DNA from: Albidovulum sediminicola
Lineage (GTDB): Bacteria > Pseudomonadota > Alphaproteobacteria > Rhodobacterales > Rhodobacteraceae
Direction: 5' to 3'
Assembly (NCBI RefSeq): GCF_025751575.1
Contig: NZ_JAOWLA010000004.1
Coordinates: 176,371 to 240,370 of the forward strand
Length of the DNA stretch: 64,000 nt
Both the position numbers and the translations under genes were made by a program. This document shows positions 800-47,495 of this stretch, piece after piece. Within the stretch, counting starts at the first letter, position 1. Each line of letters opens with the position of its first letter. The notes beneath the pieces were generated by a model. That model was not told the origin of the DNA, did not search any database, and saw nothing but the letters and a program-made list of their open reading frames with translations.

Positions 800-1110
800 A
801 GGAGGTGAAGTGCAGGCTTCTGTTGCCAGGTGCCTGCGGACCCCGCCTTACGCGGCTAAGCGCAAGGACTTAGTTTCGGCGACCCGAACTGCTTACGCAG
901 CCAGAGCCATTGCCGGAGCACGGTTGTTGTTGGCAACTGTACATTGTGGACCGATAACGGTGGTACCTCACCGAGACAAAGCAAACCCCTTTAGACGTTC
1001 GTCGATCCTATTTCGGCCCCTTCCTCCCCCAACAAGGGTATCTGGTGGAGCCGCCGGGTACCGCCCCCGGGTCCGATCCGCTTATTACGAGCGCGTTTAT
1101 GTCCATAGCC
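800..1110 (-). ncRNA. ssrA: transfer-messenger RNA, circularly permuted two-piece form
   Basis: Read on the minus strand, the acceptor piece comes first and ends in CCA at 1045-1043. A 22-base intervening segment (1042-1021) follows, then the coding piece starts at 1020. The 5' strand GGGGCCG (1020-1014) pairs with CGGCTCC (1053-1047) to form a seven-pair acceptor stem with one G-U pair and an A discriminator at 1046. A five-pair T-stem with a seven-base loop occupies 1070-1054. The sequence AGGATCGACGA just after the 5' strand matches the conserved D-loop-like region of tmRNA. The tag frame is at 934-893, and a helix between 812 and 837 probably belongs to the 3' pseudoknots. This layout is the known alphaproteobacterial arrangement. 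tmRNA rescues stalled ribosomes and marks the unfinished protein for proteolysis. Outer ends are approximate. Confidence 0.92.
893..934 (-). other. tmRNA tag reading frame
   Basis: From a GCC resume codon at 934-932 the frame encodes ANNNRAPAMALAA and stops with TAA at 895-893. The ALAA ending is the usual degradation signal recognised by ClpXP and ClpAP. A charged alanine from the RNA itself would precede the encoded residues. The Asn run and the Met inside the tag differ slightly from the tags I remember for this group. Confidence 0.9.
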
Positions 1111-1131
1111 CGGGCGAACCCGAACGCTGCG

Positions 1132-1160
1132 AATATAGGGCGCCCGCCCGCGCCCCGCAA
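1132..1160 (-). promoter_or_regulatory. sigma-70 type promoter of ssrA
   Basis: On the minus strand a TTGCGG box (1160-1155) is separated by exactly 17 bases from TATATT (1137-1132). Transcription would start around 1125, about 15 bases before the proposed 5' region of the acceptor piece. The match and spacing are good for a housekeeping promoter of a stable RNA. Confidence 0.75.
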
Positions 1161-1269: not shown

Positions 1270-2187
1270 ATGCCGCTTTCCATGAACCGCGAGGTTTTCA
1301 TCACCTGTGCCGTGACCGGCTCCGGTGCGACTCAGGACCGCAGCCCGCATGTCCCGCGCAGCCCCGAACAGATCGCCAACTCGGCCATCGACGCGGCGAA
1401 GGCCGGTGCCGCCATCGTCCATTGCCATGTGCGCGACCCCGAAACCGGCAAACCCTCGCGCCGGGTCGATCTCTACCGCGAGGTGACCGAACGCATCCGC
1501 GAGGCCGATGTGGACGTGGTCCTGAACCTGACGGCGGGGATGGGCGGCGACATCGTCTTCGGCCCGACCGAAAATCCGATGCAGCTGAACACGCAAGGAA
1601 CCGACATGATCGGCGCCTCAGAGCGGGTCGCGCATGTGGCCGAATGCCTGCCGGAAATCTGCACGCTCGACTGCGGCACGATGAACTTCGCCGAGGCCGA
1701 CTATGTCATGACCAACACGCCCGGCATGCTCCAGGCGATGGGCCGGATGATGACCCACCTGGGCGTCAAGCCCGAGATCGAGGCCTTCGACACCGGCCAC
1801 CTGTGGTACGCCAAGCAGCTTGTCGCGGACGGGATCCTCGACAGCCCCGCGCTGGTGCAGCTCTGCATGGGCGTGCCCTGGGGGGCGCCGAATGACCTCA
1901 ACACCTTCATGGCGATGGTCAACAACGTGCCGTCGGACTGGCAGTGGTCGGCCTTCTCCCTCGGGCGCGACCAGATGGCCTATGCCGCGGCGGCGGTGCT
2001 GGCTGGCGGCAACGTGCGGGTGGGGCTTGAGGACAACCTCTGGCTCGGCAAGGGGCAGCTTGCGACGAACGCGCAGCTCGTCGAGCGCGCGGCGACCATC
2101 GTCGAGAACATGGGCGCCCGCGTGATCGGTCCGGACGAGGTTCGTGCCAAGCTTGGCCTGACCAAGCGCGCGCCTCAGGCGAAGTAA
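1270..2187 (+). CDS. cdhC: beta-keto acid cleavage enzyme (BKACE), probably 3-dehydrocarnitine-cleaving
   Basis: A 305-residue member of the BKACE family (DUF849), the usual length. The zinc-binding HCHVRD motif lies at residues 51-56, and a GLEDNLW segment supplies a conserved Glu near residue 254. The N-terminal ITCAVTGSG stretch is the normal first strand. The family transfers an acyl part from a beta-keto acid to acetyl-CoA, giving acetoacetate and a new CoA ester. Because a carnitine dehydrogenase/thioesterase fusion lies two genes downstream, the substrate is most likely 3-dehydrocarnitine, giving betainyl-CoA and acetoacetate. This matches the known carnitine pathway of Pseudomonas and Sinorhizobium. 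It is the first gene of the operon, with AGGAT as ribosome site. A TATAGT at 1241-1246 may be part of its promoter, without a convincing -35 box. Confidence 0.88.
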   Translation: MPLSMNREVFITCAVTGSGATQDRSPHVPRSPEQIANSAIDAAKAGAAIVHCHVRDPETGKPSRRVDLYREVTERIREADVDVVLNLTAGMGGDIVFGPTENPMQLNTQGTDMIGASERVAHVAECLPEICTLDCGTMNFAEADYVMTNTPGMLQAMGRMMTHLGVKPEIEAFDTGHLWYAKQLVADGILDSPALVQLCMGVPWGAPNDLNTFMAMVNNVPSDWQWSAFSLGRDQMAYAAAAVLAGGNVRVGLEDNLWLGKGQLATNAQLVERAATIVENMGARVIGPDEVRAKLGLTKRAPQAK

Positions 2188-2913: not shown

Positions 2914-4374
2914 ATGGCGCGCAAGGCAGCGATTATCGGGGGCGGGGTCATCGGCGGCGGCTGGGCTGCCCGCTTCCTTCTGAACGGCTGGGACGTGGCG
3001 GTCTTTGACCCCGATCCCGAGGCCGAGCGCAAGATTGGCGAGGTCTTGGCGAACGCACGCAACGCGCTGCCCGCGCTTTCGGATGTGCCGATGCCGGCCG
3101 AGGGGCGGCTGAGCTTCGCCGACACCATCACGGAAGCCGTGGAAGGCGCTGAGTACATTCAGGAATCTGTCTCTGAACGGTTGGAGTTGAAGCACCGTGT
3201 CTTCGCGCAGATCCAGCAGGCGAGCCACGGGGCGCCCATCGGCTCCTCGACCTCGGGCTTCAAGCCGTCGGAGCTTCAGGAGAATGCGGCCGACCCCTCG
3301 GTCATCTTCGTTGCACACCCGTTCAACCCGGTCTACCTGCTGCCCCTGGCCGAGGTCGTGCCGAGCGCGAAGTCAGATGCAAAGGTGATTGAAAACGCAA
3401 AGGAAATCCTGCGTGAGATCGGGATGTTCCCGCTCCATGTCCGCAAGGAGATCGACGCCCATATCGCCGACCGCTTCCTGGAGGCCGTCTGGCGCGAGGC
3501 TCTGTGGCTCGTCAAGGACGGCATCGCCACGACCGAGGAAATCGACGAGGCGATCCGCATGGGCTTCGGTCTGCGCTGGGGGCAGATGGGTCTTTTCGAA
3601 ACCTATCGCATCGCGGGCGGCGAGGCCGGGATGAAGCACTTCCTGGCGCAGTTCGGTCCCTGCTTGACCTGGCCCTGGACCAAGCTCATGGATGTGCCGG
3701 AGTTCAACGACGAGCTCGTGGACCTGATCGCAGGGCAGTCGGACGCGCAGTCGGGTAAGCATTCCATCCGCGAACTGGAGCGCATCCGCGACCAGAACCT
3801 GATCGGCTTCATGCGTGCGCTGAAGGAGCGCAACTGGGGCGCGGGCAAGGTTCTGCTGGAACATGACGCGCGCCGTCAGGCAGCCTTCCATGCCGATGCG
3901 GCGACACCCGCTGGCGCCCCGCTGGCGCTGGTCAACACGCAGGTTCTGCCGGGATATATCGACTATAACGGTCACATGACCGAAAGCCGATATCTCTACA
4001 TCGCGTCAGATGTTTCGAACGCTTTCCTCGCGTTGATTGGGGCGGGAATGGACTATGTCTCGGCGGGCCACAGCTACTACACCGCTGAAACCCATATCAT
4101 GCATCTGGGCGAGGCGAAGCTGGGTGACCGGCTGACCGGGACGCTTCAGGTCCTGTCCATGGATGAGAAGCGCCTGCACGCCATGATCCGCGTCCTGCGC
4201 GGCGATGAGGTCGTCGCCTCGCTTGAGCAGATGTTCCTGCACGTCGACATGAAGGCGGGCAAGGCCTGCGCGGCCGCGCCTGAGGTTCTGGAGAAGCTGC
4301 GACCCATCGCCAAGGCGCATGAGGCGCTCCCGCGCCCCGAGGCCGCCGGACGCTACGTCGGCCAGCGGAAGTGA
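2914..4374 (+). CDS. cdhA: L-carnitine 3-dehydrogenase fused to betainyl-CoA thioesterase
   Basis: A 486-residue two-domain protein. Residues 1-315 form a 3-hydroxyacyl-CoA-dehydrogenase-type oxidoreductase with a dinucleotide motif IGGGVIGGGWAARF at 8-21 and a conserved HPFNPVYLLPL segment around 133-143, typical of carnitine dehydrogenase. Residues from about 335 form a hot-dog thioesterase with the DYNGHMTES motif, Asp350 being the likely catalytic residue. In Pseudomonas these are separate proteins; the fusion is known in other alphaproteobacteria. The first domain would oxidise carnitine to 3-dehydrocarnitine with NAD+. The second would hydrolyse betainyl-CoA made by the BKACE enzyme, releasing glycine betaine. 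The next gene overlaps its stop codon. Confidence 0.93.
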   Translation: MARKAAIIGGGVIGGGWAARFLLNGWDVAVFDPDPEAERKIGEVLANARNALPALSDVPMPAEGRLSFADTITEAVEGAEYIQESVSERLELKHRVFAQIQQASHGAPIGSSTSGFKPSELQENAADPSVIFVAHPFNPVYLLPLAEVVPSAKSDAKVIENAKEILREIGMFPLHVRKEIDAHIADRFLEAVWREALWLVKDGIATTEEIDEAIRMGFGLRWGQMGLFETYRIAGGEAGMKHFLAQFGPCLTWPWTKLMDVPEFNDELVDLIAGQSDAQSGKHSIRELERIRDQNLIGFMRALKERNWGAGKVLLEHDARRQAAFHADAATPAGAPLALVNTQVLPGYIDYNGHMTESRYLYIASDVSNAFLALIGAGMDYVSAGHSYYTAETHIMHLGEAKLGDRLTGTLQVLSMDEKRLHAMIRVLRGDEVVASLEQMFLHVDMKAGKACAAAPEVLEKLRPIAKAHEALPRPEAAGRYVGQRK

Positions 4375-5132
4375 GTGCGCGGGTCGTCATCACCGCCGGA
4401 GCCTCTGGCATCGGGCTGGCCATGGCGCGGGCGTTCCAGGCGCGGGGCGACCGCGTCTGGGTCACCGATGTCGATGAAGCGGCTTTGGCCGCGGTCCCGG
4501 ACGGGATTGTGGCGGCGCGCGTCGATGCCTCGGACGACGCGCAGATGGGAGGCTTCTTCAAGGAAGTCAGTGCCCTGTGGGGCGGTCTTGATGTTCTGTG
4601 CGCCAATGCCGGGATCAAGGGACCGACCGCGGCGATCGAGGACATGGACCTCGCCCAGTGGCGTGACTGCCTGGCGGTCAATCTTGACGGGGCGATGCTG
4701 GCGGCGAAACACGCCACACCCCTGATGAAGGCCCAGCGGTCCGGCGTGATGACCTTCACCTCCTCGACCGCCGGGCTTTACGGCTTTCCCTATCGCGCGC
4801 CCTATGCGGCAGCGAAATGGGCGGTGATCGGGCTGATGAAGACGGTGGCGATGGAGCTTGGCCCCTTCGGCATCCGCGCCAACGCGATCTGTCCGGGCTC
4901 CGTCAACGGCCCGCGCATCGACCGGGTGTTCGAGGCGGAGGCGGCGGCCAAGGACATGACGCCCGACGCGGTGCGCGCGGGTTATGCGGCTGGCACGGCG
5001 CTCGGATTGCTTTCGGACGCCGAGGACATTGCCAATATGGCGGTTTTCCTGGCCTCCGAGGGCGCGCGGATGGTGTCCGGGCAGGTGATGACGGTCGACG
5101 GCTTCACCATCAACCCGGACCCGAAAGTATGA
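4371..5132 (+). CDS. short-chain dehydrogenase/reductase of the carnitine operon
   Basis: A 253-residue classical SDR. The cofactor loop is written TAGASGIG (residues 8-15), a small variation of TGxxxGIG. The catalytic residues are Ser132, Tyr145 and Lys149, with the usual NAG motif (CANAG) near residue 80 and the C-terminal GQVMTVDGF. The GTG start overlaps the preceding stop as GTGA, so the gene is translationally coupled to the carnitine dehydrogenase. Two roles fit: reduction of the acetoacetate released by the BKACE reaction to 3-hydroxybutyrate, or oxidation of another hydroxylated quaternary amine. The sequence alone does not decide between these. Confidence 0.82.
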   Translation: MSARVVITAGASGIGLAMARAFQARGDRVWVTDVDEAALAAVPDGIVAARVDASDDAQMGGFFKEVSALWGGLDVLCANAGIKGPTAAIEDMDLAQWRDCLAVNLDGAMLAAKHATPLMKAQRSGVMTFTSSTAGLYGFPYRAPYAAAKWAVIGLMKTVAMELGPFGIRANAICPGSVNGPRIDRVFEAEAAAKDMTPDAVRAGYAAGTALGLLSDAEDIANMAVFLASEGARMVSGQVMTVDGFTINPDPKV

Positions 5133-5176: not shown

Positions 5177-6688
5177 TTATTCCCCGCGGGGGAAGCGCTT
5201 GGAGTCCTCGAGGATGTTGAGGTCCATGTGGTTGCGCATATAGCGTTCGGAGGCTTTCTGAAGCGGCTGGTAATCCCAGGGGAAGTAGTTGCCGTTGCGC
5301 AGCGCCTCGTAGACGACCCAGCGGCGGGCCTGGCTTTGCCGCACCTCGGCATCGAAGCGGGCGAGGTCCCAACGTGCCTCGGACTTCGCCTTCAGCGCGG
5401 CCAGCGTGTCGGCATGGGCCGGGACATCGGCAAGGTTCGTCAACTCGTGCGGATCGGCCTCAAGGTCGAAGAGCTGGTCGGGGTCCAGCGCGCAGCGGTT
5501 GTACTTCCAGCGCCCGTCGCGCAGCGAGACGAGCGGCGCGTAGGAAGCCTCAGCCGCGTATTCGATCATCACCGGCGCGGTGCGCGCCTGACCGCCCATC
5601 AGCGGCAGAAGGCTTTCGCCGTCGGTCCAGGGCATGACTTCGTCCATGCTGACGCCGGCCAGGTCGCACAGCGTGGGGGTCACGTCGATGGTCGAAACCG
5701 GCGTGTCGATGCGGCGCGCCTCGGCCGAGCTTCCCGCGATCATCAGCGGCACGCGGGCGGAGCCTTCGAAGAAGTTCATCTTGAACCACAGCCCGCGTTC
5801 GCCCAGCATGTCGCCATGATCGGACACGAAGAGGATCACCGCCTCCTGCCGGGTGGTTTCCAGCGCCTCCAGAATCCCCGCAATCTTGTCGTCGAGGTAG
5901 GAGATGTTGGCGAAATAGGCGCGGCGCGACCGGCGGATGTCGTCCTCGGTGATGGTGAAGTTCTTCCAATCGTTGGCGTCGAAGATACGCTTGGAATGGG
6001 CGTCATGCGCCTCATAGGGCATCGCCGGAACCTCGGGCAGCAGGTGCTCGCAGTCCTCGTACAGGTCCCAGTACTTCTTGCGCGCGACGTAGGGGTCGTG
6101 CGGGTGGGTGAAGCTGACGGTCAGGCACCAGGGACGTTCGTCGCCGCCGCGCGCCAGGTCGTAAACCTTGCGGGTGGCGTTGTAGGCGACCTCATCGTCG
6201 TATTCCATCTGGTTGGTGATCTCGGCCACGCCCGCGCCGGTGACGGAGCCCATGTTGTGATACCACCAGTCGATGCGCTCACCCGGCTTGCGGTAATCGG
6301 GGGTCCAGCCGAAGTCGGCGGGGTAGATGTCGGTGGTCAGCCGCTCCTCGAAGCCGTGAAGCTGGTCGGGACCGACGAAATGCATCTTGCCCGACAGGCA
6401 GGTCTGGTAGCCCGCGCGGCGCAGGTGATGGGCGAAGGTCGGGATGTCAGAGGCGAATTCGGCCGCGTTGTCGTAAACCCGTGTGCGCGAGGGAAGCTGG
6501 CCCGACATGAAGGACGCGCGACCCGGTGCGCAAAGGGGCGAGCCGGTGTAGGTGTTGGCGAAGCGCACCGAGCGTGCCGCCAGCGCCTTCAGCGTCGGCG
6601 CGTGCAGCCAGTCCGCCGGGCCGTCGGGAAACAGGGTTCCGTTCAACTGGTCCACCATCAGGATCAGGATGTTCGGCTTCTGGGACAT
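5177..6688 (-). CDS. betC: choline-sulfatase
   Basis: A 503-residue arylsulfatase-family enzyme, close to the usual length of choline sulfatases. Asp13 in LILMVDQ is a metal ligand. Cys53 in SPLCAPGR is the residue converted to formylglycine, and VSDHGDMLGERG carries further metal ligands. The YDDEV segment and the C-terminal region rich in aromatic residues (residues 430-500) fit BetC rather than general sulfatases. It has no signal peptide, which agrees with cytoplasmic hydrolysis of imported choline-O-sulfate to choline and sulfate. The ATG is preceded by AAGGAGAG. Choline from this reaction and betaine from the carnitine operon enter the same osmoprotectant/one-carbon route. betA, betB and betI are not in the window. 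Confidence 0.9.
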   Translation of the reverse strand: MSQKPNILILMVDQLNGTLFPDGPADWLHAPTLKALAARSVRFANTYTGSPLCAPGRASFMSGQLPSRTRVYDNAAEFASDIPTFAHHLRRAGYQTCLSGKMHFVGPDQLHGFEERLTTDIYPADFGWTPDYRKPGERIDWWYHNMGSVTGAGVAEITNQMEYDDEVAYNATRKVYDLARGGDERPWCLTVSFTHPHDPYVARKKYWDLYEDCEHLLPEVPAMPYEAHDAHSKRIFDANDWKNFTITEDDIRRSRRAYFANISYLDDKIAGILEALETTRQEAVILFVSDHGDMLGERGLWFKMNFFEGSARVPLMIAGSSAEARRIDTPVSTIDVTPTLCDLAGVSMDEVMPWTDGESLLPLMGGQARTAPVMIEYAAEASYAPLVSLRDGRWKYNRCALDPDQLFDLEADPHELTNLADVPAHADTLAALKAKSEARWDLARFDAEVRQSQARRWVVYEALRNGNYFPWDYQPLQKASERYMRNHMDLNILEDSKRFPRGE

Positions 6689-6795: not shown

Positions 6796-8802
6796 ATGGT
6801 GAGAACGGTGACGGATTTCCCGCGCGAGGTGGTCGAAACCCCGGATCTGGGGATCGTCCTGGCCGACGGGTGCCGGCTTTCGGCGCGGGTCTGGATGCCG
6901 GTGGATGCGCTGGAAAAGCCGGTGCCGGCGGTGATGGAATACATTCCCTACCGCAAGCGTGACATGACGCTGCCGCGCGATGAGCTGATGCATCCCTATT
7001 TCGCGGGGCACGGCTATGCCGCCGTGCGCGTTGACATGCGCGGCTGCGGCGACAGCGAAGGGCTGATGGAGGACGAATATACCGAGCAGGAACTGTCCGA
7101 CGCCTGCGAGGTGATCGCCTGGCTCGCGGCCCAGCCCTGGTGCAGCGGCACCGTGGGCATGATGGGGAAGAGCTGGGGCGGGTTCAACTGCCTGCAAACC
7201 GCGATGCGGCGTCCGCCCGCGCTGAAGGCCGTCGTCACGGTCTGTTCGACGGTGGACCGGTTCGCCGACGACATCCACTACAAGGGTGGTTGCCTGCTGG
7301 GGGAAAACTTCGGCTGGACGGCGCAGATGATGTCCTATGCTTCGCGCCCGCCCGATCCGATGCTGGCGGGCAATTCCTGGCGCGACATCTGGCTTCAGCG
7401 GCTAGAGGCGCAGCCCTTTCTTGCCGAGCGTTGGTTCAGCCATCAGGCCCGCGACGACTACTGGAAGCACGGCTCGCTTTGCGAGGACTACGGGTCCATC
7501 ACCGCGGCGGTCCTGTCCTTCGGGGGTTGGGCCGACAACTACATGAACACCGTCTCTCATCTGGTCGAGAACCTGACGGCGCCGGTGAAGGGGATCGTGG
7601 GGCCCTGGGTCCACCAGTATCCCCACACCGCGCTTCCCGGACCCGCGATCGGCTTCCTGCAGGAGGCGCTGCGCTGGTGGGACCGCTGGCTGAAGGACGT
7701 GCCGAACGGGGCGGAAGATGATCCCGCCTACCGGGCCTACATGCTTCACTCCGCGCCGCCCGATGCCAACTCCGCCTTCCGTCCCGGGCACTGGGTGGCC
7801 GAAAAGGACTGGCCCACGGCCCGTGTCTCGCGCAGGGAGATTGCGCTTTCGTCGGGCGGGGTCTTGGGCGGGCAGGGCGGTGCGCTGTCGGTCGCTGTCT
7901 CCACGCCGCAGCATTTGGGCCTTCACGCAGGCGAGTATTTCCCCATGGGCGGGAACGGAGAGATGCCGGGCGACCAGGCGCCAGAGGACGCGCTGTCGGT
8001 CTGCTTCGATACCGCGCCGCTGGGCGCGCCGCTCGATCTGCTGGGGGCTGCGACGCTGACGCTTAGGCTCCGGTCCGACAAGCCGCGCGCCTTCGTCGTC
8101 GCGCGGCTCTGCGACGTGGCGCCGGATGGCAGTTCTGTGCGCATCAGCCACGGGATGCTGAACCTTTGCCACCGTGACAGCCGGGAATGGCCGACCGACA
8201 TGCCCCTGGGGCAGGAGGTGGAGGTCACGCTGACCCTCGACCAGATGGGCTACCGTCTGGCCGAGGGACACCGGCTGCGGCTTGCGCTCTCGACCACCTA
8301 CTGGCCCTTCGTCTGGCCCAGCGCCGAGGCCGCGACTCTGACCCTAGCGGGCGGGACGCTTGATCTTCCGATCCATCAGGGCGGTACGGGCAACGAATGG
8401 ACTTTCCCCGAACCGGAGGCCGCGCGGGGCTGGAACCACCGCGTCATCCGCCCCGAAGCCTATGTGCGCCGCGTCGAACATGACATCATCACTGGCCGCC
8501 GCACCCTTGTGATGGAGGCCGACGCGGGCGACAGCGAAAACCTCGATCACGGCTGGACCTTCGGCGACACCGTGCGCGAACGCTGGGGAATCGATCCCGG
8601 AGATCCACTGTCAGCTTGCCTGGAGATCGAATGGGAACAACGTCTTGCACGGGATGACTGGTCCGCGCGCACTCAGGTAAGCGCCCGGATGACGGCCGGG
8701 CGCGACGTATTCCATCTGCGCGCGACCCTGCGCGCGCTGGAAGGATCCGAGGAGGTGTTTAGCCGCGAATTCGCGCGCGATATCCCCCGCGTCCATGTCT
8801 GA
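6796..8802 (+). CDS. CocE/NonD family (peptidase S15-like) serine hydrolase
   Basis: A 668-residue hydrolase. Residues 1-300 carry an alpha/beta-hydrolase core with the nucleophile in GKSWGG (Ser126) and an early VDMRGCGDSEG block, both typical of CocE/NonD and X-Pro dipeptidyl-peptidase relatives. The C-terminal half (from about residue 330) holds the jelly-roll domain, with the DLLGAATLTLRL and VTLTLDQMGYRLAEGHRLRLALS segments. Known members hydrolyse esters (cocaine esterase), glutaryl-cephalosporins or peptides. No signal peptide is visible, so it probably acts on imported substrate. A GGAGG site precedes the ATG. It leads a presumed transcription unit with two solute-binding proteins and a transporter, so the transported compound is probably the ester or amide it cleaves. 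The substrate is unknown. Confidence 0.88.
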   Translation: MVRTVTDFPREVVETPDLGIVLADGCRLSARVWMPVDALEKPVPAVMEYIPYRKRDMTLPRDELMHPYFAGHGYAAVRVDMRGCGDSEGLMEDEYTEQELSDACEVIAWLAAQPWCSGTVGMMGKSWGGFNCLQTAMRRPPALKAVVTVCSTVDRFADDIHYKGGCLLGENFGWTAQMMSYASRPPDPMLAGNSWRDIWLQRLEAQPFLAERWFSHQARDDYWKHGSLCEDYGSITAAVLSFGGWADNYMNTVSHLVENLTAPVKGIVGPWVHQYPHTALPGPAIGFLQEALRWWDRWLKDVPNGAEDDPAYRAYMLHSAPPDANSAFRPGHWVAEKDWPTARVSRREIALSSGGVLGGQGGALSVAVSTPQHLGLHAGEYFPMGGNGEMPGDQAPEDALSVCFDTAPLGAPLDLLGAATLTLRLRSDKPRAFVVARLCDVAPDGSSVRISHGMLNLCHRDSREWPTDMPLGQEVEVTLTLDQMGYRLAEGHRLRLALSTTYWPFVWPSAEAATLTLAGGTLDLPIHQGGTGNEWTFPEPEAARGWNHRVIRPEAYVRRVEHDIITGRRTLVMEADAGDSENLDHGWTFGDTVRERWGIDPGDPLSACLEIEWEQRLARDDWSARTQVSARMTAGRDVFHLRATLRALEGSEEVFSREFARDIPRVHV

Positions 8803-8901
8803 ACGCATGTCAAAGCGAAGGTGCCGCATTTTTTGTTTGACCCCAGCGCCTGAGCCGACATTATTGACTCAACAATCAACAAAACTTCTAGGGAGAAGAT
8901 A

Positions 8902-10488
8902 ATGAAAGACGAACTCGCCATCCTGCTCGACCGCCTGGACGCGATGGGGATCACCCGCCGCGGCTTCATGGGGCGGGCGGCTGCCTTCGGCGCGGCGACC
9001 GCACTGGGCACCACGGTGATGGGCAGCGCGGCGCGCGCGCAGGAACCCAAGCGCGGCGGCATCCTGAAGATGGGCCTTGGCGGCGGTGAGACCACCGACA
9101 CGCTCGATCCGGGTCTGGCCGACAGCCCGGTGCCGTTCTCCATCAACCGTCAGTGGGGTGACACGGTCGTGAACGTGACCGCCGACGGGCAGATCGAACC
9201 GTCGCTGGCCGAAAGCTACTCCGTCAGCGAGGACGGCAAGGTCTGGACCTTTGCGATCCGTCAGGGCGTCAAGTTCCACGACGGCTCCGACATGACGGCC
9301 GAGGATGTCGCGGCCACGTTCCGCCGTCACTCTGACGAGAACTCCAAATCCGGCGCGCTCGGCATCATGAAGGGCATCGTCAGCATCGAAGTCGATGGCC
9401 AGAACGTCGTTCTGACGATGGAGACGGGCAATGCCGACCTTCCTTACCTGCTTTCCGACTATCACCTGCTGATCCAGCCGGGCGGCGGCGTGGACAACCC
9501 GACCGCGGCCGTTGGCACGGGGGCCTACAAGCTGGTGTCGGCGGAACCGGGCGTGCGCTATGTGTTCGAAAAGAATGCCGACGACTGGAACCAGGATCGC
9601 GGCTACTACGACGGGGTCGAGGTCATCGTGATCAACGATGCGACCGCGCGGACCGCAGCATTGCAGTCCGGTCAGGTCCACATGATCAACCGGATCGACC
9701 CGAAGGTCGCGAAGCTTCTGGCACGGGCGCCGGGCGTCCAGGTCACGAACGTCTCGGGCCGCGGTCATTATGTGTTCATCATGCACACCAACACCGCGCC
9801 CTTCGACAACAAGGACCTGCGCAACGCGCTGAAATGGGCGATCAACCGTCAGGAGCTGGTCGACAAGATCCTCGACGGGTTCGGGGGGGTCGGCAATGAC
9901 GTCCCGATCAACGCCGCCTATCCGCTGTTCGACAACAGCCTTGAGCAGCGCGAGTACAACGCCGAGAAGGCGGCGGAGCTTTACAAGGCCTCGGGCCACG
10001 ACGGCAGCCCGATCGAGCTTCTGGTGGCCGATGGCGCCTTCCCGGGCGCGGTCGATGCGGCGCAGCTCTTCCAGCAGTCGGCGCAGGCGGCGGGCATCCC
10101 GCTTGAGGTCAAGCGCGTGCCCGACGATGGCTACTGGTCGGACGTGTGGAACGTGAAGCCCTTCTGCGCCTCCTACTGGGGCGGGCGGCCGGTGCAGGAC
10201 CAGATGTATTCGACGGCCTATCTGTCGACGGCGGACTGGAACGACACCAAGTTCAACAACCCGGAATTCGACGCGCTGCTGCTTGAGGCGCGCGCCGAGA
10301 CGGATACCGCCAAACGCAAGGAGATCTACTCCAAGATGGCGCATATCCTCTGGGAAGAGGGCGGTCTGATCTGCCCGATGTTCAACGACTTCATCGACGC
10401 GCACGGCGATGCGATTGCCGGTTGGTACGAGGACCCGAACTACGAGATGATGGGGGGCTGGGCCTCTCACAAGACCTGGTTCGCCTGA
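8902..10488 (+). CDS. ABC transporter solute-binding protein, family 5 (first of two paralogs)
   Basis: A 528-residue extracytoplasmic binding protein of the peptide/nickel/opine class. The N-terminus has a twin-arginine signal (TRRGFMGR at residues 18-25, then a small-residue hydrophobic stretch and an ARAQ cleavage site near residue 49). The body shows family landmarks: 'LDPGLADS', a VWTFAIRQGVKFHDG segment, and LRNALKWAINRQELVDKI. Export by Tat suggests folding before export. It lies 99 bases after the CocE gene and upstream of a second copy of identical length. A GGGAGAAG site precedes the ATG. The likely cargo is a hydrophobic or bulky small molecule linked to the hydrolases around it; family 5 proteins also bind non-peptides. 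Confidence 0.92.
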   Translation: MKDELAILLDRLDAMGITRRGFMGRAAAFGAATALGTTVMGSAARAQEPKRGGILKMGLGGGETTDTLDPGLADSPVPFSINRQWGDTVVNVTADGQIEPSLAESYSVSEDGKVWTFAIRQGVKFHDGSDMTAEDVAATFRRHSDENSKSGALGIMKGIVSIEVDGQNVVLTMETGNADLPYLLSDYHLLIQPGGGVDNPTAAVGTGAYKLVSAEPGVRYVFEKNADDWNQDRGYYDGVEVIVINDATARTAALQSGQVHMINRIDPKVAKLLARAPGVQVTNVSGRGHYVFIMHTNTAPFDNKDLRNALKWAINRQELVDKILDGFGGVGNDVPINAAYPLFDNSLEQREYNAEKAAELYKASGHDGSPIELLVADGAFPGAVDAAQLFQQSAQAAGIPLEVKRVPDDGYWSDVWNVKPFCASYWGGRPVQDQMYSTAYLSTADWNDTKFNNPEFDALLLEARAETDTAKRKEIYSKMAHILWEEGGLICPMFNDFIDAHGDAIAGWYEDPNYEMMGGWASHKTWFA

Positions 10489-10496
10489 TCCAAGGC

Positions 10497-10532
10497 GCCC
10501 GCCGCCCAGCCTTTCGGGGCCGGACGGCGGGC
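10497..10532 (+). other. intercistronic stem-loop between the paralogous binding-protein genes
   Basis: GCCCGCCG (10497-10504) and CGGCGGGC (10525-10532) form a perfect eight-pair stem with a 20-base loop starting nine bases after the stop codon. There is no T-run, so it is more likely an mRNA-stabilising or attenuating structure that raises the amount of binding protein relative to downstream genes. Confidence 0.55.
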
Positions 10533-10635
10533 GACCAGCGCGGTCCTGGCTCGCCTTGACGGGGAAACTGTCCGGACGCTTCCGGGCCGCGCTTCTTACA
10601 GTTCAACCCAATAAGAAAAACTAGGGGAGGTCCTC

Positions 10636-12222
10636 GTGAACGACGAACTGAAGTATCTTCTTGAGCGCACCGTCGCGGGTCGGCAGAGCCGCCGGGCATT
10701 CCTGGGCCGCGCGGGCGCCCTTGGCATGTCGGCCGCCATGGCCAACACCATGCTCGCTTCGGCGGCGCGTGCGCAGGAGCCGAAGAAGGGCGGGCTGATC
10801 CGCATGGGGATGCAGGGCGGCGAAAGCACCAACACGCTTGACCCGGCGCTCGCAGCCTCCGAGGTGCCGTTCGCGGTCAACATGACCTGGGGGGAGATGC
10901 TGACGGACGTGGACCCGAACGGCAATCTCGACATGCGGATCGCCGAGGAGGTGTCCTCCAGCCCCGACGCGAAGACCTGGAAATTCAAGATCCGCCAGGG
11001 CGTGGAGTTCCACAACGGCAAGACCGTGACGGCCGAGGACGTGCTGGCCACGATGCAGCGCCATTCCGACGAGAACTCCCAGTCGGGTGCCCTTGGCATC
11101 GTCCAGGGGATCGAGTCGATGTCGGCCGAGGGCGACATGTTCACGGTGACGCTCGCCTCGCCGAATGCCGACCTTCCCTATCTGATGGGGGACTATCACC
11201 TGATCATCCAGCCGGATGGCGGTCGCGATGACCCGGCGGCGGGAATCGGCGCGGGCCCCTACAAGGTCGTGGTGAACGAGCCGGGCGTGCGCCATGGCTT
11301 CGAGAAGCATGTGAACTACTGGGACGACCGTATCGGCCACGCCGACCAGACCGAGATCCTGGTCATCAACGACACCACCGCGCGTGTGGCAGCCCTTCAG
11401 GCGGGGCAGGTCCACATGATCAACCGCGTGGACCCCAAGGTCTACGGTTTGCTCAAGAAGGCGCCAGGCATCCTGGTCCACGCGACGCCGGGTCGGGGCC
11501 ATTATGTCTTCATCATGCACTGCACCGCGGCGCCCTTCGACAACAACGACCTGCGCATGGCGCTTAAGCTCGCCATCAACCGGCATGAGATGGTGGACAA
11601 GGTCCTGGGCGGGCTGGGCTCGGTCGGTAACGACTTCCCGATCAACTCTGCCTATCCGCTCTTTGACAACACGATCCCGCAGCGCGAATACGATCCGGAG
11701 CAGGCGGCCTTCTACTACAAGAAGTCCGGCCATGACGGCAGCCCGATCATCCTGCGCACCGCGTCGGGCGCCTTCCCCGGCGCGGTCGAGGCGGCGCAGC
11801 TTTACCAGCAGTCCGCCGCGGCTGCCGGCATTCCGCTGGAGATCAAGCGGGAGCCGGACGACGGCTACTGGTCGGACGTCTGGAACGTGCAGCCCTTCTG
11901 CGCCTCTTATTGGGGCGGGCGCCCGGTCCAGGACCAGATGTATTCGACGGCCTACCTGTCGAGCGCCGAGTGGAACGACACCAAGTTCTACAACGACAAG
12001 TTCGACAGCCTGCTGATCGCGGCGCGCGCCGAACTCGACAACGAAAAGCGCAAGGGCATGTATTCGGAGATGGCGCATATCCTGCGCGATGAAGGCGGGC
12101 TGATCTGTCCGATGTTCAACGATTTCGTCGAGGGTGTAAGCGACGCCATCGCGGGTTGGACATCCGATCCGAACGGCGAACTGATGAACGGCCGCGCGCA
12201 CGTCAAGTGCTGGCTGGCCTGA
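10636..12222 (+). CDS. ABC transporter solute-binding protein, family 5 (second paralog)
   Basis: A 528-residue binding protein that aligns along its whole length with the preceding gene product. Shared blocks include SDVWNV with PFCASYWGGRPVQDQMYSTAYLS, MINR-DPKV, GHYVFIMH and SPI near residue 380, so the pair arose by tandem duplication. It also has a twin-arginine signal (SRRAFLGR at residues 19-26). The GTG start at 10636 is preceded by CTAGGGGAGG, a strong ribosome site. The permease gene follows after 10 bases. Two receptors for one permease pair imply two related ligands or two affinities. Divergence is greatest in loops and in the last residues. Confidence 0.92.
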   Translation: MNDELKYLLERTVAGRQSRRAFLGRAGALGMSAAMANTMLASAARAQEPKKGGLIRMGMQGGESTNTLDPALAASEVPFAVNMTWGEMLTDVDPNGNLDMRIAEEVSSSPDAKTWKFKIRQGVEFHNGKTVTAEDVLATMQRHSDENSQSGALGIVQGIESMSAEGDMFTVTLASPNADLPYLMGDYHLIIQPDGGRDDPAAGIGAGPYKVVVNEPGVRHGFEKHVNYWDDRIGHADQTEILVINDTTARVAALQAGQVHMINRVDPKVYGLLKKAPGILVHATPGRGHYVFIMHCTAAPFDNNDLRMALKLAINRHEMVDKVLGGLGSVGNDFPINSAYPLFDNTIPQREYDPEQAAFYYKKSGHDGSPIILRTASGAFPGAVEAAQLYQQSAAAAGIPLEIKREPDDGYWSDVWNVQPFCASYWGGRPVQDQMYSTAYLSSAEWNDTKFYNDKFDSLLIAARAELDNEKRKGMYSEMAHILRDEGGLICPMFNDFVEGVSDAIAGWTSDPNGELMNGRAHVKCWLA

Positions 12223-12232
12223 GGCGGACGGT

Positions 12233-13189
12233 ATGCATCCCATTATAAAACTTCTGGCCCAGCGGTTGTCGCTGGGTCTGCTTCTGCTTCTGGCCGCGTC
12301 GGCGCTGATTTTCATCGGGGTGGAGCTGCTGCCCGGCGACGTGGCGCAATCGATCCTGGGGCAGTCGGCCACCGAAACCGCGCTGCGCAACCTGCGCGAG
12401 GAACTGGGGCTGAACGAGCCCGCGCTGACCCGCTATTTCAACTGGCTTTTCGCGGCGATACAAGGGGACCTGGGGACGGCGCTGACCAATGGGCAGAGCA
12501 TCTCAAAGGCCGTGGGCGAACGTCTGGGCAACACCCTGTTCCTTGCCTTCTGGGCCGCGATCATCTCGGTTCCGCTGGCGATCATCCTCGGCCTTATTGC
12601 GGTGCGCTACCGCAACCGCTGGCCGGACAAGCTGATCTCGGCGGTGACGCTGTCCACGATTTCTCTGCCGGAGTTCGTGGCGGGCTACCTGCTGATGTAC
12701 CTCTTCACAGTGCAGTTCCGCATCTTCTCGCCCATCTCCACCATCTATTCCGGGATGAGCCTGGGGGAAAAGCTGTCGGCAATCGCACTGCCGGTCATGG
12801 TGCTGGTGCTGGTGGTCCTGGCGCATATGATGCGGATGACCCGGGCCGCGATCCTGAACGTCATGCAGTCGGCCTACGTTGAGACAGCCGAACTCAAGGG
12901 CCTGCGCCCCTTCGTGATCATCGCGCGCCACGCCTTCCCCAACGCGATCGCGCCCGTCGTCAACGTGGTGATGCTGAACCTGGCCTATCTGGTCGTCGGC
13001 GTCGTCGTGGTGGAGGTCGTCTTCGTCTATCCCGGCATGGGGCAGTACCTGGTCGATCACGTCACCAAGCGCGACCTTCCGGTTGTGCAGGCCTGCGGGC
13101 TGATCTTCGCGGCGGTCTATATCGGCCTTAACATCATGGCCGATGTGATCTCCATCCTTGCCAACCCGCGACTGAGGCACCCGAAATGA
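12233..13189 (+). CDS. ABC transporter permease, DppB-like
   Basis: A 318-residue inner-membrane protein with six predicted membrane segments and the short N-terminal periplasmic region of DppB-type permeases. The cytoplasmic EAA loop reads VETAELKGLRPFVIIARHAFPNAIAP (residues about 219-244), the ATPase contact site. The LPGD motif and LRNLREELGLNEP segment near residues 34-58 are characteristic of the family. It follows the second binding protein and overlaps the next permease gene by four bases (ATGA), so the two form a heterodimer channel. Confidence 0.92.
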   Translation: MHPIIKLLAQRLSLGLLLLLAASALIFIGVELLPGDVAQSILGQSATETALRNLREELGLNEPALTRYFNWLFAAIQGDLGTALTNGQSISKAVGERLGNTLFLAFWAAIISVPLAIILGLIAVRYRNRWPDKLISAVTLSTISLPEFVAGYLLMYLFTVQFRIFSPISTIYSGMSLGEKLSAIALPVMVLVLVVLAHMMRMTRAAILNVMQSAYVETAELKGLRPFVIIARHAFPNAIAPVVNVVMLNLAYLVVGVVVVEVVFVYPGMGQYLVDHVTKRDLPVVQACGLIFAAVYIGLNIMADVISILANPRLRHPK

Positions 13190-14019
13190 GCCGCATTCCC
13201 GTTTCGGCCCTGATCGGTCTGATCCTGACCTCGGCCTTCTTCCTCACGGCGATCTTCGCCAATGTGCTTGCGCCCTACGGGCTGAACCAGACGGTGGGCG
13301 ATGTCTGGGAAAACCCGTTCTGGTCGGCGGAGCCCTCGCAGTACCTGCTCGGCACCGACAACATTGGGCGCGACCTGCTCAGCCGGATGATCTACGGCTG
13401 CCAGATCACCATCTTCCTGGCCACCGCCGCGACGATCGTCAGCTTTACCACCGGCTCAATCCTGGGCTTCACGGCGGCGGTGCTGGGCGGTTGGGTCGAT
13501 CAGGTGATGTCGCGCATCGTCGATCTGTTCATGTCGCTGCCCTCGCTGATCCTAGCGCTGGTGATCCTGTCGGTGATGCAGGTGACGCTGCCGGTCCTGG
13601 TGATCGTCATCGGGCTTCTGGATTCGACCCGCGTCTATCGCCTGGCCCGTGCCGTGGCGGTCGATATCGTGGTCATGGACTATGTGGAGGCCGCCCGCCT
13701 GCGCGGCGAAGGCACGCGCTGGATCGTCCTGCGGGAGATCCTGCCGAATGCGCTCTCGCCGCTGGTCGCGGAACTAGGCCTGCGCTTCATCTTCGCAGTG
13801 CTCTTCATCTCCACGCTGTCGTTCCTGGGGCTGGGGGTTCAGCCGCCGCTCGCCGACTGGGGCGGGATGGTGAAGGAGAACAAGGAAGGTCTGGTCTACG
13901 GAATCTCTGCCGCGCTTGTTCCGGCCATGGCGATCGCGGCGCTGGCGATCTCGGTCAACCTGGTGGCGGACTGGGTCCTGAACCGCACCACCTCGCTGAA
14001 AGGAGGCCGCGGTGCCTGA
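13186..14019 (+). CDS. ABC transporter permease, DppC-like
   Basis: A 277-residue permease with the family signature LLGTDNIGRDLLSRMIYG (residues 54-71) and the EAA-type loop AARLRGEGTRWIVLREILPNALSPL. Six membrane segments can be traced. It pairs with the DppB-like subunit. The start overlaps the previous stop, and the ATPase gene begins within its last codons, all signs of one co-translated transporter operon. Confidence 0.92.
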   Translation: MSRIPVSALIGLILTSAFFLTAIFANVLAPYGLNQTVGDVWENPFWSAEPSQYLLGTDNIGRDLLSRMIYGCQITIFLATAATIVSFTTGSILGFTAAVLGGWVDQVMSRIVDLFMSLPSLILALVILSVMQVTLPVLVIVIGLLDSTRVYRLARAVAVDIVVMDYVEAARLRGEGTRWIVLREILPNALSPLVAELGLRFIFAVLFISTLSFLGLGVQPPLADWGGMVKENKEGLVYGISAALVPAMAIAALAISVNLVADWVLNRTTSLKGGRGA

Positions 14020-15649
14020 CATTCTTCTGGACGTTCGCAATCTGAAGATCGGCGCCACGGTCTATCCGCCCGGCGAAGCGCCGCAGGATATCGAGATCGT
14101 GCATGGCGTGTCCTTCACGCTCGAAAAGGGCAAGGTGCTGGGCCTGATCGGGGAATCGGGCGCGGGCAAATCGACCATCGGCCTGTCCTCGATGGCCTAC
14201 GGGCGGGGCGGGGTCCGTATCACCGGGGGTGAGGTCTTCGTCAGCGGGCGTGATATCCTGAAGGAGCGGCCCGGCGGCCTTCGCGCGCTGCGCGGCCGGG
14301 AGGTGACATATGTCGCGCAATCGGCGGCGGCGGCCTTCAACCCGGCGAAGAAGATCATCGACCAGGTAATCGAAACCACGCTGATGCATGGCCTTGCCAC
14401 CCGGGCCGAGGCAGAGGCGCGCGCGGTCGGGCTGTTCCGCAAGCTCGGCCTGCCGAACCCGGATACGTTCGGCGAGCGCTATCCGCACCAGGTCTCCGGC
14501 GGGCAGTTGCAGCGGGCGATGACCGCGATGGCGCTCTGTCCGGAGCCCGATCTGGTTGTTTTCGACGAACCGACGACCGCGCTGGACGTGACGACGCAGA
14601 TCGACGTTCTGGCCGCGATCAAGGAGGCGATCCACGCGACCGGCGTCGCCGCACTTTACATCACCCACGACCTTGCCGTGGTGGCGCAGGTGTCGGACGA
14701 CATCATGGTTCTGCGCAACGGCAAGACCGTGGAATACGGCACGGTGAGCGAGATCATCGAGACCCCCAAGGAGGAGTATACCCGCGCGCTCGTCTCGGTC
14801 CATGCGATCGAGCATGAGGAAAAGAAGCCCACGGGCGAACCGGTGCTGAAGGTCGAAAACGTGACTGCCCGTTACAAGGGTACGAATTTCGACGTCCTCA
14901 AGAACGTGAGCGTGGAGCTTTATCCCGGCCAGACGCTGGCTGTCGTGGGGGAAAGCGGTTCGGGGAAATCTACGCTCGCGCGGGCGATCACGGGGTTGCT
15001 GCCGCCGACGAAGGGGCGGATCACCTTTGCGGGGCGCGAGCTGTCCAAGGAGCTCAAGGACCGCAAGCTGGACGACCTGCGCGAGTTGCAGATGATCTAC
15101 CAGATGGCCGACGTGGCCATGAACCCGCGCCACACGGTGGGCACGATCATCGGCCGCCCGCTGGAGTTCTACTTCGGCCTGAAGGGCGAGGCGAAGCGCA
15201 AGCGCGTGCAGGAGCTTCTGGACGAGATCGAGATGGGCACGGGCTTCATCGACCGTTACCCGGCCGAGCTTTCGGGCGGGCAGAAGCAGCGCGTCTGCAT
15301 CGCCCGCGCGCTGGCCGCGAAGCCCAAGCTGATCATCTGTGACGAGGTGACCTCGGCCCTCGACCCGCTGGTGGCGGCCGGCATCCTGCGGCTGCTCCTG
15401 AACCTTCAGCAGATCGAGGGCGTGGCCTATCTGTTCATCACGCATGACCTCGCGACGGTGAAGTCGATCGCGGATTCGATCGCGGTCATGTACCAGGGCG
15501 CCGTCCAGCGCTACGGCGGCAAGACCGACGTGCTGACACCGCCCTTTGACGATTACACCGACCTGCTGTTGTCGTCGGTACCGGAGATGAAGCTTGGTTG
15601 GCTGGAACATGTCCTTGCCCACCGCAAGATGGAGAGTGCCGGGAATTGA
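14012..15649 (+). CDS. ABC transporter ATP-binding protein, two fused nucleotide-binding domains (DppD/DppF type)
   Basis: A 545-residue protein with two complete ATPase modules. The first has Walker A GESGAGKST, signature VSGGQLQR and Walker B VVFDEPTTALD. The second has GESGSGKST, LSGGQKQR and LIICDEVTSALD. Each is followed by the H-loop (ITHDLA). This single chain would replace the DppD-DppF pair and energise the two permeases upstream. The C-terminal cysteine-containing extension seen in many oligopeptide ATPases is missing from both halves. The GTG start at 14012 has AAAGGAGG just upstream and overlaps the permease gene by eight bases. Confidence 0.92.
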   Translation: MPDILLDVRNLKIGATVYPPGEAPQDIEIVHGVSFTLEKGKVLGLIGESGAGKSTIGLSSMAYGRGGVRITGGEVFVSGRDILKERPGGLRALRGREVTYVAQSAAAAFNPAKKIIDQVIETTLMHGLATRAEAEARAVGLFRKLGLPNPDTFGERYPHQVSGGQLQRAMTAMALCPEPDLVVFDEPTTALDVTTQIDVLAAIKEAIHATGVAALYITHDLAVVAQVSDDIMVLRNGKTVEYGTVSEIIETPKEEYTRALVSVHAIEHEEKKPTGEPVLKVENVTARYKGTNFDVLKNVSVELYPGQTLAVVGESGSGKSTLARAITGLLPPTKGRITFAGRELSKELKDRKLDDLRELQMIYQMADVAMNPRHTVGTIIGRPLEFYFGLKGEAKRKRVQELLDEIEMGTGFIDRYPAELSGGQKQRVCIARALAAKPKLIICDEVTSALDPLVAAGILRLLLNLQQIEGVAYLFITHDLATVKSIADSIAVMYQGAVQRYGGKTDVLTPPFDDYTDLLLSSVPEMKLGWLEHVLAHRKMESAGN

Positions 15650-16482
15650 GCCACAACAAACTGCTCCTCATCATCCTGGATGGGGTTCCCTACGCCAACT
15701 GGCGACGGCTGTTCGGCAATCTTGAGGGCTGGGTGGAGGAAGGCGAGGCGCGCGTCTGGCGGATGCGTTCGGTCCTGCCGTCCACCTCGGCCTCCTGCTA
15801 TGCCTCGATCCACACCGGGGTGACACCGCAGGCTCACCGGATCTGGGACAACGCAGATACCCGCCGGCTTGAGTTTCCCGACATCTTTTCCGAGGCGTCG
15901 AAGGCGGGGCTCAAGACCGGGGCGGTGACCCACAGCTACTGGTCGGAGTTCTTCAACCGCGCCCCCTTCGATGTGGTGCGCGACATCGAGTATGACGAGC
16001 CCGATGGGCCGATCACCCACGGCCGCTTTCACACGATGCACGGCTACGGGCATATCAACCAGATGACGCCCGCCGATTACGACCTGTTCGGAACCCTCAC
16101 GCGGCTTTGCGAGGTCAAGGGGATCGACTACGGCATCCTGCACACCTGCACGCTAGACAGCATGGGGCACCGTTTCTACCACGATTGCGAGGAGATGGAT
16201 AATGCCTGCGCCAAGATGGACGCGACGCTGGCGCCATTCCTCCACCGCTGGCGCGCCGCAGGGTATGAGGTGATCGTGACCGCCGACCATGGCCAGGACG
16301 CGCGCGGTCATCATGGCGGCACGGGGCCTGATCAGCGTGACTTCGCGCTATACTACTTCGGTCCAGCCGAAGGTCCCGCGCCGGACGTGGTCCTGGATCA
16401 GCTCGCACTGGCGCCGACGATCTTGGGCCGCCTCGGTGTCCCGGTCCCCGAGACTATGAAGGCCGCGCCCTTCCTGCGCTAG
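15646..16482 (+). CDS. alkaline-phosphatase-superfamily hydrolase (nucleotide pyrophosphatase/phosphodiesterase type)
   Basis: A 278-residue protein with the metal-site pattern of type-I phosphodiesterases. These are ILDGVP with Asp8-9 region near the N-terminus, a Thr/Ser nucleophile region (STSASCYASIHTGVTP), DSMGHRFYHD, and VTADHGQDARGHHGG. I chose the TTG at 15646 because it overlaps the ATPase stop as TTGA and has GGAGAG at a proper distance; the open frame extends upstream without another good start. It has no signal peptide. As the last gene of the transport operon it may cleave a phosphodiester or phosphonate part of the imported compound, such as a phosphocholine-type headgroup. That role is inferred only from position. 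Confidence 0.82.
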   Translation: MSHNKLLLIILDGVPYANWRRLFGNLEGWVEEGEARVWRMRSVLPSTSASCYASIHTGVTPQAHRIWDNADTRRLEFPDIFSEASKAGLKTGAVTHSYWSEFFNRAPFDVVRDIEYDEPDGPITHGRFHTMHGYGHINQMTPADYDLFGTLTRLCEVKGIDYGILHTCTLDSMGHRFYHDCEEMDNACAKMDATLAPFLHRWRAAGYEVIVTADHGQDARGHHGGTGPDQRDFALYYFGPAEGPAPDVVLDQLALAPTILGRLGVPVPETMKAAPFLR

Positions 16483-44874: not shown

Positions 44875-44884
44875 GGCGTTCCCC

Positions 44885-46312: not shown

Positions 46313-46324
46313 GCCTGTTCCTCC

Positions 46325-47365: not shown

Positions 47366-47453
47366 GGCTGTCGGTCCCTTTCTCCCGCGAATTGGGAGCA
47401 GGCTGTCACGCCGTCATGACGGCGCGTTTCTTCGGGTTCGAACCGAACGAAAT

Positions 47454-47482: not shown

Positions 47483-47495
47483 AGGTCTTCTCGGA

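What the first reader, a model, noticed from the sequence alone, without database searches (positions are those of the whole stretch)
6796..16482. Possible undescribed scavenging system: CocE hydrolase, two paralogous receptors, ABC transporter, phosphodiesterase
An uninterrupted seven-gene unit joins an uptake system to two different cytoplasmic hydrolases (ester/amide and phosphodiester type). It is divergent from betC across a palindrome, next to carnitine degradation. The combination suggests import of a conjugate that carries both an ester or amide and a phosphate or phosphonate, perhaps a choline- or carnitine-bearing one. I know no described pathway with exactly this set.
Basis: inference. 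Interest (0 to 1): 0.7.

Follow-up and report, generated by a model that had tools for sequence, protein, structure and literature searches.

The report
Choline/carnitine ester importer with hydrolases
A peptide-type ABC importer with two receptor proteins and two hydrolases sits next to choline and carnitine degradation genes and carries a DNA site like those that the choline sensor BetI is known to bind, so it likely takes up and cuts esters of choline and carnitine under choline control.

Summary
The seven genes are real, but the unit is better read as cocE plus a six-gene operon (two SBPs, two permeases, fused double ATPase, phosphodiesterase). A 16-nt palindrome (8864-8879) lies 38 nt before sbp1. 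In this genome its only other exact copy lies between betI and choXWV. Across the order the same motif recurs in front of betI(-betC) and of this SBP, and it resembles the footprinted R. pomeroyi BetI1 box. The importer is therefore predicted to belong to the choline (BetI) regulon. Independently, relatives of the importer sit in carnitine/gamma-butyrobetaine operons in Rhizobium, Agrobacterium, Paracoccus and other Rhodobacteraceae, some with CocE. betC is its divergent neighbour in several genera. CocE and the phosphodiesterase occur without each other, so they probably serve different substrates rather than one double conjugate. Most likely: uptake of choline/carnitine esters, then intracellular cleavage by CocE, the phosphodiesterase and BetC. 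No ligand or activity has been measured. The parts are known kinds; the combination with predicted BetI control is new to me. It offers candidates for an unidentified choline-O-sulfate importer and for unidentified long-chain acylcarnitine hydrolases.

The parts
6796..8802 (+). cocE: CocE/NonD (S15) alpha/beta hydrolase, 668 aa, no signal peptide seen
   Evidence: TIGR00976 over cut-off, PF02129 + PF08530; aligned to cocaine esterase over residues 20-504, with GKSWGG, GGWAD and GPWVH opposite its GKAYLG, AGWYD and GPWSH (that these hold the catalytic Ser/Asp/His, and that 7f65 is a Ser-to-Ala mutant, is recalled)
8864..8879 (.). predicted BetI-type operator TTGACTCAACAATCAA, 38 nt before sbp1
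   Evidence: one of two exact sites in the whole genome; shared with betI promoters; enrichment before SBPs
8902..10488 (+). sbp1: SBP_bac_5 receptor with twin-arginine N-terminus
   Evidence: PF00496 266 bits; AlphaFold model pLDDT 84.5 matches SBP_bac_5 receptors of the PDB
10496..10533 (+). hairpin between sbp1 and sbp2, no T-run seen
   Evidence: MFE -41.7 kcal/mol for 10488-10560, z -2.56
10636..12222 (+). sbp2: paralogous SBP_bac_5 receptor, 63% identical to sbp1, GTG start
   Evidence: PF00496 236.8 bits; groups with L126/L071 SBPs (0.994), not with sbp1
12233..13189 (+). permease B
   Evidence: PF00528, PF19300
13186..14019 (+). permease C
   Evidence: PF00528
14012..15649 (+). fused double ABC ATPase (OppD-OppF type)
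   Evidence: two PF00005 stretches
15646..16482 (+). pde: compact NPP-type phosphodiesterase of the alkaline phosphatase superfamily, 278 aa
5177..6688 (-). betC: choline-O-sulfatase, divergent from cocE
   Evidence: TIGR03417 902.5 bits
2914..4374 (+). carnitine 3-dehydrogenase fused to a thioesterase domain
   Evidence: PRK07531 777.7 bits; PF13279 4HBT_2
1270..2187 (+). BKACE (3-dehydrocarnitine cleavage candidate)
   Evidence: PF05853 343.7 bits; no NCBIfam BKACE equivalog cut-off reached
4371..5132 (+). SDR dehydrogenase that travels with carnitine dehydrogenase in relatives
   Evidence: PF13561; beside carnitine dehydrogenase in L290-L293, L295, L297
17450..18505 (-). hormone-sensitive-lipase-like alpha/beta hydrolase, frequent convergent neighbour; start uncertain
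   Evidence: PF07859 188 bits; in 30 of the first 60 loci by ORF clustering

Best explanation
The genes encode an Opp-type ABC importer with two receptors plus two hydrolases without visible export signals, which together likely import esters of choline and carnitine and cut them inside the cell, and the importer operon carries a site predicted to bind the choline-sensing repressor BetI. Inferred working: the two receptors, which have twin-arginine N-termini, would present different quaternary-ammonium esters to one shared permease and ATPase; inside, BetC would split choline-O-sulfate, CocE carboxylic esters such as O-acylcarnitine or acylcholine, and the phosphodiesterase a choline phosphodiester; choline would go to BetA/BetB and carnitine to carnitine dehydrogenase and BKACE, both routes giving glycine betaine. 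Choline released would bind BetI and lift repression of sbp1-sbp2-permeases-ATPase-pde. Shown: gene families, gene order, conservation, operator sequence. Inferred: ligands, reactions, regulation.
Against: No ligand, enzyme or expression data. 48 of 56 clade-I genomes with carnitine dehydrogenase do not have it within 15 kb. 40 of 63 clade-I SBPs lack the operator at 1 mismatch (a few starts were misplaced), and it was not found in the ten plasmid loci. Across the order the backwards control pattern also occurs, 54 times against 197, so some sites are chance. Some relatives sit elsewhere: Mesorhizobium pMLa beside peptidase and amino-acid genes, SBPs without permeases in Sinorhizobium and Shinella. 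The genome has other quaternary-amine importers: choXWV, 2 BCCT and 4 further OpuAC proteins. PDE fold similarity is as high to nucleotide-cleaving NPPs, so choline specificity is not shown. ATPase halves pass the NikD/NikE cut-offs. Nearest solved receptors bind peptides, glutathione and opines.
Confidence: 0.5

Rival explanations
1. The importer takes up free carnitine or gamma-butyrobetaine (not esters); CocE and pde serve unrelated or occasional substrates.
For: Carnitine/gamma-butyrobetaine genes with the importer but without CocE in the A. fabrum, P. denitrificans, L129 and L131 loci; R. pomeroyi cntTUVW is a four-gene carnitine transporter by mutant growth (PMC10130141, passages), though its protein family was not stated in the text seen and I could not locate it.
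Against: CocE lies within 4 kb of the SBP in 38 of 57 clade-I genomes, and a bare SBP-permease-permease-ATPase-CocE unit occurs on a Serratia plasmid; the betI and betC links point to choline too.
Confidence: 0.22
2. The importer is mainly the missing choline-O-sulfate importer of these bacteria, with BetC as its enzyme.
For: betC-betI divergent from the SBP with the operator between (5 of the 6 g26 loci L150-L155); R. [quoted passage not shown]
Against: In many genomes betC is not adjacent (for example 38-58 kb away in those compared by eye); does not explain CocE, pde or the carnitine operons.
Confidence: 0.15
3. Uptake of glycerophosphocholine or lysophosphatidylcholine: CocE/HSL remove the acyl chain, pde splits the phosphodiester, an acyl-CoA synthetase uses the fatty acid.
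For: PDE has the ENPP6/ENPP7 core fold; an acyl-CoA synthetase is present in 27 of the first 60 loci, in 22 within two genes of HSL; BetI control fits choline release.
Against: cocE without pde in 11 and pde without cocE in 12 of 57 genomes; synteny among close genera may explain the synthetase, and none was seen in the window.
Confidence: 0.08
4. An ordinary peptide (or nickel-chelate) importer with a dipeptidyl-peptidase-like S15 enzyme.
For: Opp/Nik family membership; ATPase passes NikD/NikE cut-offs; Mesorhizobium pMLa context.
Against: Both SBPs score far below the cut-off of every receptor model listed (for example DppA 76 of 1005, Opp5A 156 of 600 for sbp1).
Confidence: 0.05

Closest known systems
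P. aeruginosa caiX-cdhCAB-hocS carnitine operon with CbcWV (PMC5806209, passages read; that several receptors share CbcWV is from a cited title)
   Same: Receptor, 3-dehydrocarnitine cleavage, carnitine dehydrogenase, thioesterase and an acylcarnitine hydrolase in one unit
   Different: Here the importer is of the Opp/SBP_bac_5 type with its own double ATPase, the hydrolase is CocE/S15, an NPP-type phosphodiesterase is added, and the control site is BetI-like rather than CdhR-like
BetI regulon with choXWV/betABC (R. pomeroyi, PMC12442346, passages read)
   Same: Operator-like palindrome, choline sulfatase next door, betI-choXWV in the same genome
   Different: The predicted regulon is extended to a peptide-type importer and a phosphodiesterase; arm spacing of the box differs
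R. pomeroyi cntTUVW carnitine transporter (PMC10130141, passages read)
   Same: Four-component carnitine importer in the same order of bacteria
   Different: Its protein family and position were not verified here; homology to this importer is untested
Agrocinopine/opine importers AccA, AgaA (PDB 4ra1, 6hlx)
   Same: SBP_bac_5 receptors for a non-peptide ligand; the acc operon also pairs import with a phosphodiesterase (recalled)
   Different: 22-25% identity, sugar-phosphate or amino-acid opines
Cocaine esterase and CocE/NonD family (PDB 7f65)
   Same: Same two-domain alpha/beta hydrolase family
   Different: Distant (about 100 bits), longer C-terminus, unknown substrate
Xac NPP, ENPP6 and ENPP7 (PDB 2gsn, 5egh, 5tcd)
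   Same: Catalytic core fold and conserved metal/nucleophile positions
   Different: 278 aa against about 380-390; Ser where NPPs have a Thr nucleophile (Thr recalled); 16-19% identity

Membership tests
Opp/Dpp-type ABC importer (SBP_bac_5) | PF00496 receptor, two BPD_transp_1 permeases, two ATPase domains in one locus | tested here: met
Dipeptide, oligopeptide or nickel transporter (NCBIfam equivalogs) | Receptor scores over the equivalog cut-off | tested here: not met
   best 156.3 of 600 (Opp5A), DppA 76.1 of 1005 for sbp1; note that the ATPase passes NikD and NikE cut-offs
BetI regulon | BetI box in the promoter | tested here: inconclusive
   same palindrome as betI promoters of the order, but arms TTGA..TCAA are 8 apart here and 4 apart in the published BetI1 box: a related, not identical, site
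BetI regulon | betI in the genome | tested here: met
   (TIGR03384 223 bits, cut-off 201.3)
BetI regulon | BetI binds the site and choline induces the operon | not testable with these tools
   needs EMSA and expression data
Carnitine catabolic operon (cdh type) | BKACE, carnitine dehydrogenase and thioesterase together | tested here: met
   window 1270-2187 and 2914-4374 (4HBT_2 fused); near, not shown to be co-transcribed with, the cluster
Carnitine importer CaiX/CbcWV | Receptor of the OpuAC type (recalled) | tested here: not met
   receptors match PF00496 only; OpuAC proteins lie elsewhere in the genome
CocE/NonD hydrolases | TIGR00976 over cut-off, S15 and PepX_C domains | tested here: met
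CocE/NonD hydrolases | Esterase activity on choline or carnitine esters | not testable with these tools
   no assay
NPP/type I phosphodiesterases | PF01663 over cut-off, NPP core fold, metal ligands kept | tested here: met
ENPP6/ENPP7 choline phosphodiesterases | Choline-specific pocket | not tested
   coordinates of the model were not available for a pocket comparison (one search found no model file)

The most novel reading that the evidence does not exclude
A BetI-controlled 'quaternary-ammonium ester' island: one peptide-type importer with exchangeable receptors is the missing choline-O-sulfate importer and an acylcarnitine/acylcholine importer, CocE is a medium/long-chain acylcarnitine (and acylcholine) hydrolase, and the compact NPP enzyme is an intracellular choline phosphodiesterase, so that choline freed by any of the hydrolases induces uptake of all the conjugates.
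Probability: 0.25. Interest if true: 0.75.

Novelty: new variant of a known kind. Interest (0 to 1): 0.6.

Why it matters
Choline, carnitine and their esters are abundant leftovers of algae, plants and animals. Two published gaps become directly testable: R. pomeroyi has unidentified choline-O-sulfate transporter(s) (PMC12442346), and the enzymes that cut medium- and long-chain acylcarnitines in P. aeruginosa were reported as not identified in 2018 (PMC5806209). If right, many proteins now named 'peptide ABC transporter' and 'CocE/NonD family hydrolase' in Alphaproteobacteria, and some in Gammaproteobacteria, would get a concrete function, and the choline regulon would include them.

Tried and rejected
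Single conjugate with ester and phosphate: weakened by independent presence of cocE and pde. The betC-cocE palindrome as shared operator: not conserved. CdhR-like GCGAC direct repeats upstream of cocE: 3 of 47 against 6 of 470 random windows, not convincing. PDE neighbours outside the cluster (ten proteins from L073, L091, L100, L104, L106, L119) gave mostly unrelated genes, one BKACE-like protein in L073. Structure of sbp1: ordinary receptor fold; among the 50 rows shown the nearest bind peptides, glutathione, opines, nickel complexes and sialic acid, none a quaternary amine that I recognise. Profile search of the SBP alignment against solved chains returned nothing, with the limit I set at 1e-60. 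Paper searches for prior links: CocE + carnitine gave one irrelevant case report; CocE + carnitine + Rhodobacter + ABC transporter none; BetI/ABC transporter/peptide/choline-O-sulfate/Rhodobacter (four of five) gave 11 papers, of which I saw the listing and passages of three. PMC5503199 and PMC3648032 are not held.
Full report
What is there. The window lies in a 4.13-Mb genome, contig C44; the closest pde relative (93% identity) is named Albidovulum sp., so the family is Rhodobacteraceae (Paracoccaceae in NCBI's naming). On the + strand: cocE 6796-8802, sbp1 8902-10488, sbp2 10636-12222, permease B 12233-13189, permease C 13186-14019, double ATPase 14012-15649, pde about 15646-16482. Upstream: BKACE 1270-2187, carnitine 3-dehydrogenase with a fused thioesterase domain 2914-4374, an SDR 4371-5132, betC on the minus strand 5177-6688. 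Downstream on the minus strand: an EamA protein and an HSL-type hydrolase. Both SBPs begin with a twin-arginine stretch (RRGF, RRAF); cocE and pde show no signal peptide, so cleavage is expected inside the cell (read from the sequence; no signal-peptide program was run).

Conservation. Of 149 genomes of the order, 47 have the pde. SBP hits fall into a window-like clade I (61 copies in 57 genomes) and more distant relatives, here called clade II (37-48% identity in the list). Of the 57 clade-I genomes, 27 have cocE within 4 kb and pde within 15 kb, 11 only cocE, 12 only pde, 7 neither; 39 of 47 pde genomes have a clade-I SBP within 15 kb. One same-genus genome, G106, has betC, then cocE directly followed by pde, with no transporter between (L072). 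The two SBPs are not a recent local duplicate: sbp1 groups with the single SBP of L085 (support 1.0) and sbp2 with those of L126 and L071 (0.994). R. etli p42c also has two SBPs of this family in its carnitine cluster.

Link to carnitine. In G062, G073 and G046 the whole island is contiguous: BKACE, carnitine dehydrogenase, SDR (not detected in G046), acyl-CoA dehydrogenase, CoA ligase, crotonobetainyl-CoA-hydratase-like protein (296 bits, cut-off 500), choline-dehydrogenase-like GMC protein, betC, then cocE, SBP, permeases, ATPase, and pde in G062 and G073 (families). The window is a shortened form. In G064 and G014 BKACE and carnitine dehydrogenase lie just upstream of cocE-SBP in the same direction; in G055 just upstream of the SBP; in G087 they are divergent from it. 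In clade II, BKACE-SBP-carnitine dehydrogenase-permeases-ATPase-hydrolase is one run of genes in Paracoccus and Agrobacterium fabrum C58. In Rhizobium leguminosarum and R. etli the complete gamma-butyrobetaine/carnitine set is followed by SBP, permeases and ATPase, and CocE with the alpha/beta hydrolase follows. Counting positions, clade-I SBPs lie within 15 kb of carnitine dehydrogenase in 8 of 56 genomes that have both (8 genera; 0.45 expected at random) and the other listed SBPs in 6 of 56 (4 genera; 0.6 expected) (the SBP list was cut at weak matches, and G073 at 15.4 kb just misses the limit). In the 80 named clade-II loci kept, 11 hold BKACE or carnitine dehydrogenase, 6 hold cocE, 2 a betC above 40% identity; several of these loci are short contigs. 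Of ten plasmid loci that I chose to open out of 299 records, 5 hold carnitine genes, 5 CocE, 3 neither.

Link to choline. betC is divergent from cocE in six genomes of four genera, from pde in G098, and from an SBP in eight loci (L137, L150-L156; in L156 the betC is only 47% identical). The decisive new observation is the operator. TTGACTCAACAATCAA (8864-8879) lies 38 nt before sbp1. The pattern TTGAYTNNNNARTCAA is exact at two places in the genome: here, and between divergent betI and choXWV; a weaker neighbour there, ATTGACGCGCCAAT, matches the published R. pomeroyi BetI1 box ATTGACGCGTCAAT at 13 of 14 positions. Over the order, 125 of 149 genomes have a site, 197 sites in all, against 54 sites in 43 genomes for the pattern read backwards, so roughly a quarter may be chance. 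Of 31 site loci opened, 19 are directly before betI, 6 before this SBP, 6 neither. Within 350 nt upstream and at most one mismatch the motif is found for 23 of 63 clade-I SBPs and 4 of 29 others against 2 of 1555 random windows. The pattern was first drawn from SBP promoters, so its reappearance at betI promoters is an independent check. The spacing of the arms differs from the published box (8 against 4 between TTGA and TCAA), so BetI binding is predicted, not shown.

How it most likely works. Esters of choline and carnitine bind SBP1 or SBP2 and enter through one permease pair driven by the double ATPase. Inside, BetC, CocE and pde each free a quaternary amine from a different kind of ester; choline and carnitine both end as glycine betaine through the bet genes and through carnitine dehydrogenase plus BKACE. 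Free choline would relieve BetI at sbp1, a positive loop; cocE lies before the operator and must have another promoter. The parallel is P. aeruginosa caiX-cdhCAB-hocS, where HocS cuts short-chain acylcarnitines while the enzymes for longer chains were not identified (PMC5806209, passages). All of this paragraph is inference.

What does not fit. Carnitine genes are not near the cluster in 48 of 56 clade-I genomes; the operator is absent from many SBP promoters and from the ten plasmid loci; some relatives sit in amino-acid contexts or lack permeases nearby; and the genome has other choline and betaine importers. The pde is the loosest member: in 8 of 47 genomes it is not near the SBP. Clade-I presence and carnitine dehydrogenase presence are associated (56 of 57 against 67 of 92; Fisher 3e-5), but phylogeny is not corrected for.

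Verdict. The components are known kinds in a new arrangement with predicted BetI control: a new variant of a known kind.

Noticed in passing
window 802-1135, minus strand: tmRNA gene, marked tmRNA* by ARAGORN (permuted type, as I recall the notation), tag ANNNRAPAMALAA, just upstream of the BKACE gene.
   Followed up: no
window 43009-49115, minus strand: A second, only distantly related Opp-type ABC system (SBP about 27% identical to sbp1/sbp2).
   Followed up: no
L304:9146-9334 (G000:C70): The betI-choXWV intergenic region has two BetI-like boxes, TTGACTCGTCAATCAA near betI and ATTGACGCGCCAATCAA near choX.
   Followed up: partly
many G genomes: In a number of relatives compared by eye betC lies about 38-58 kb from the SBP cluster on the same contig, so betC and the importer may share a conserved chromosomal region even when not adjacent.
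   Followed up: no
L343 (Serratia proteamaculans plasmid, 8770-15786): A bare SBP-permease-permease-ATPase-CocE unit on a plasmid typed as conjugative: the importer and CocE travel alone.
   Followed up: no
window 10496-10533: Stable hairpin between sbp1 and sbp2 without a T-run; could set receptor-to-permease mRNA ratio.
   Followed up: partly
G074:C2, G130:C34, G072:C3: cocE homologues with a single in-frame stop, probable pseudogenes.
   Followed up: no
L229, L231, L254, L264, L266 (Pseudomonas species): Clade-II importer next to acyl-CoA dehydrogenase and CoA-ligase genes like those of the carnitine islands.
   Followed up: no
L071 and L100, betC intergenic regions: TTGCGAC direct repeats with 22-nt period before cocE or pde; a GCGAC-repeat test over 47 cocE upstream regions found little.
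   Followed up: partly
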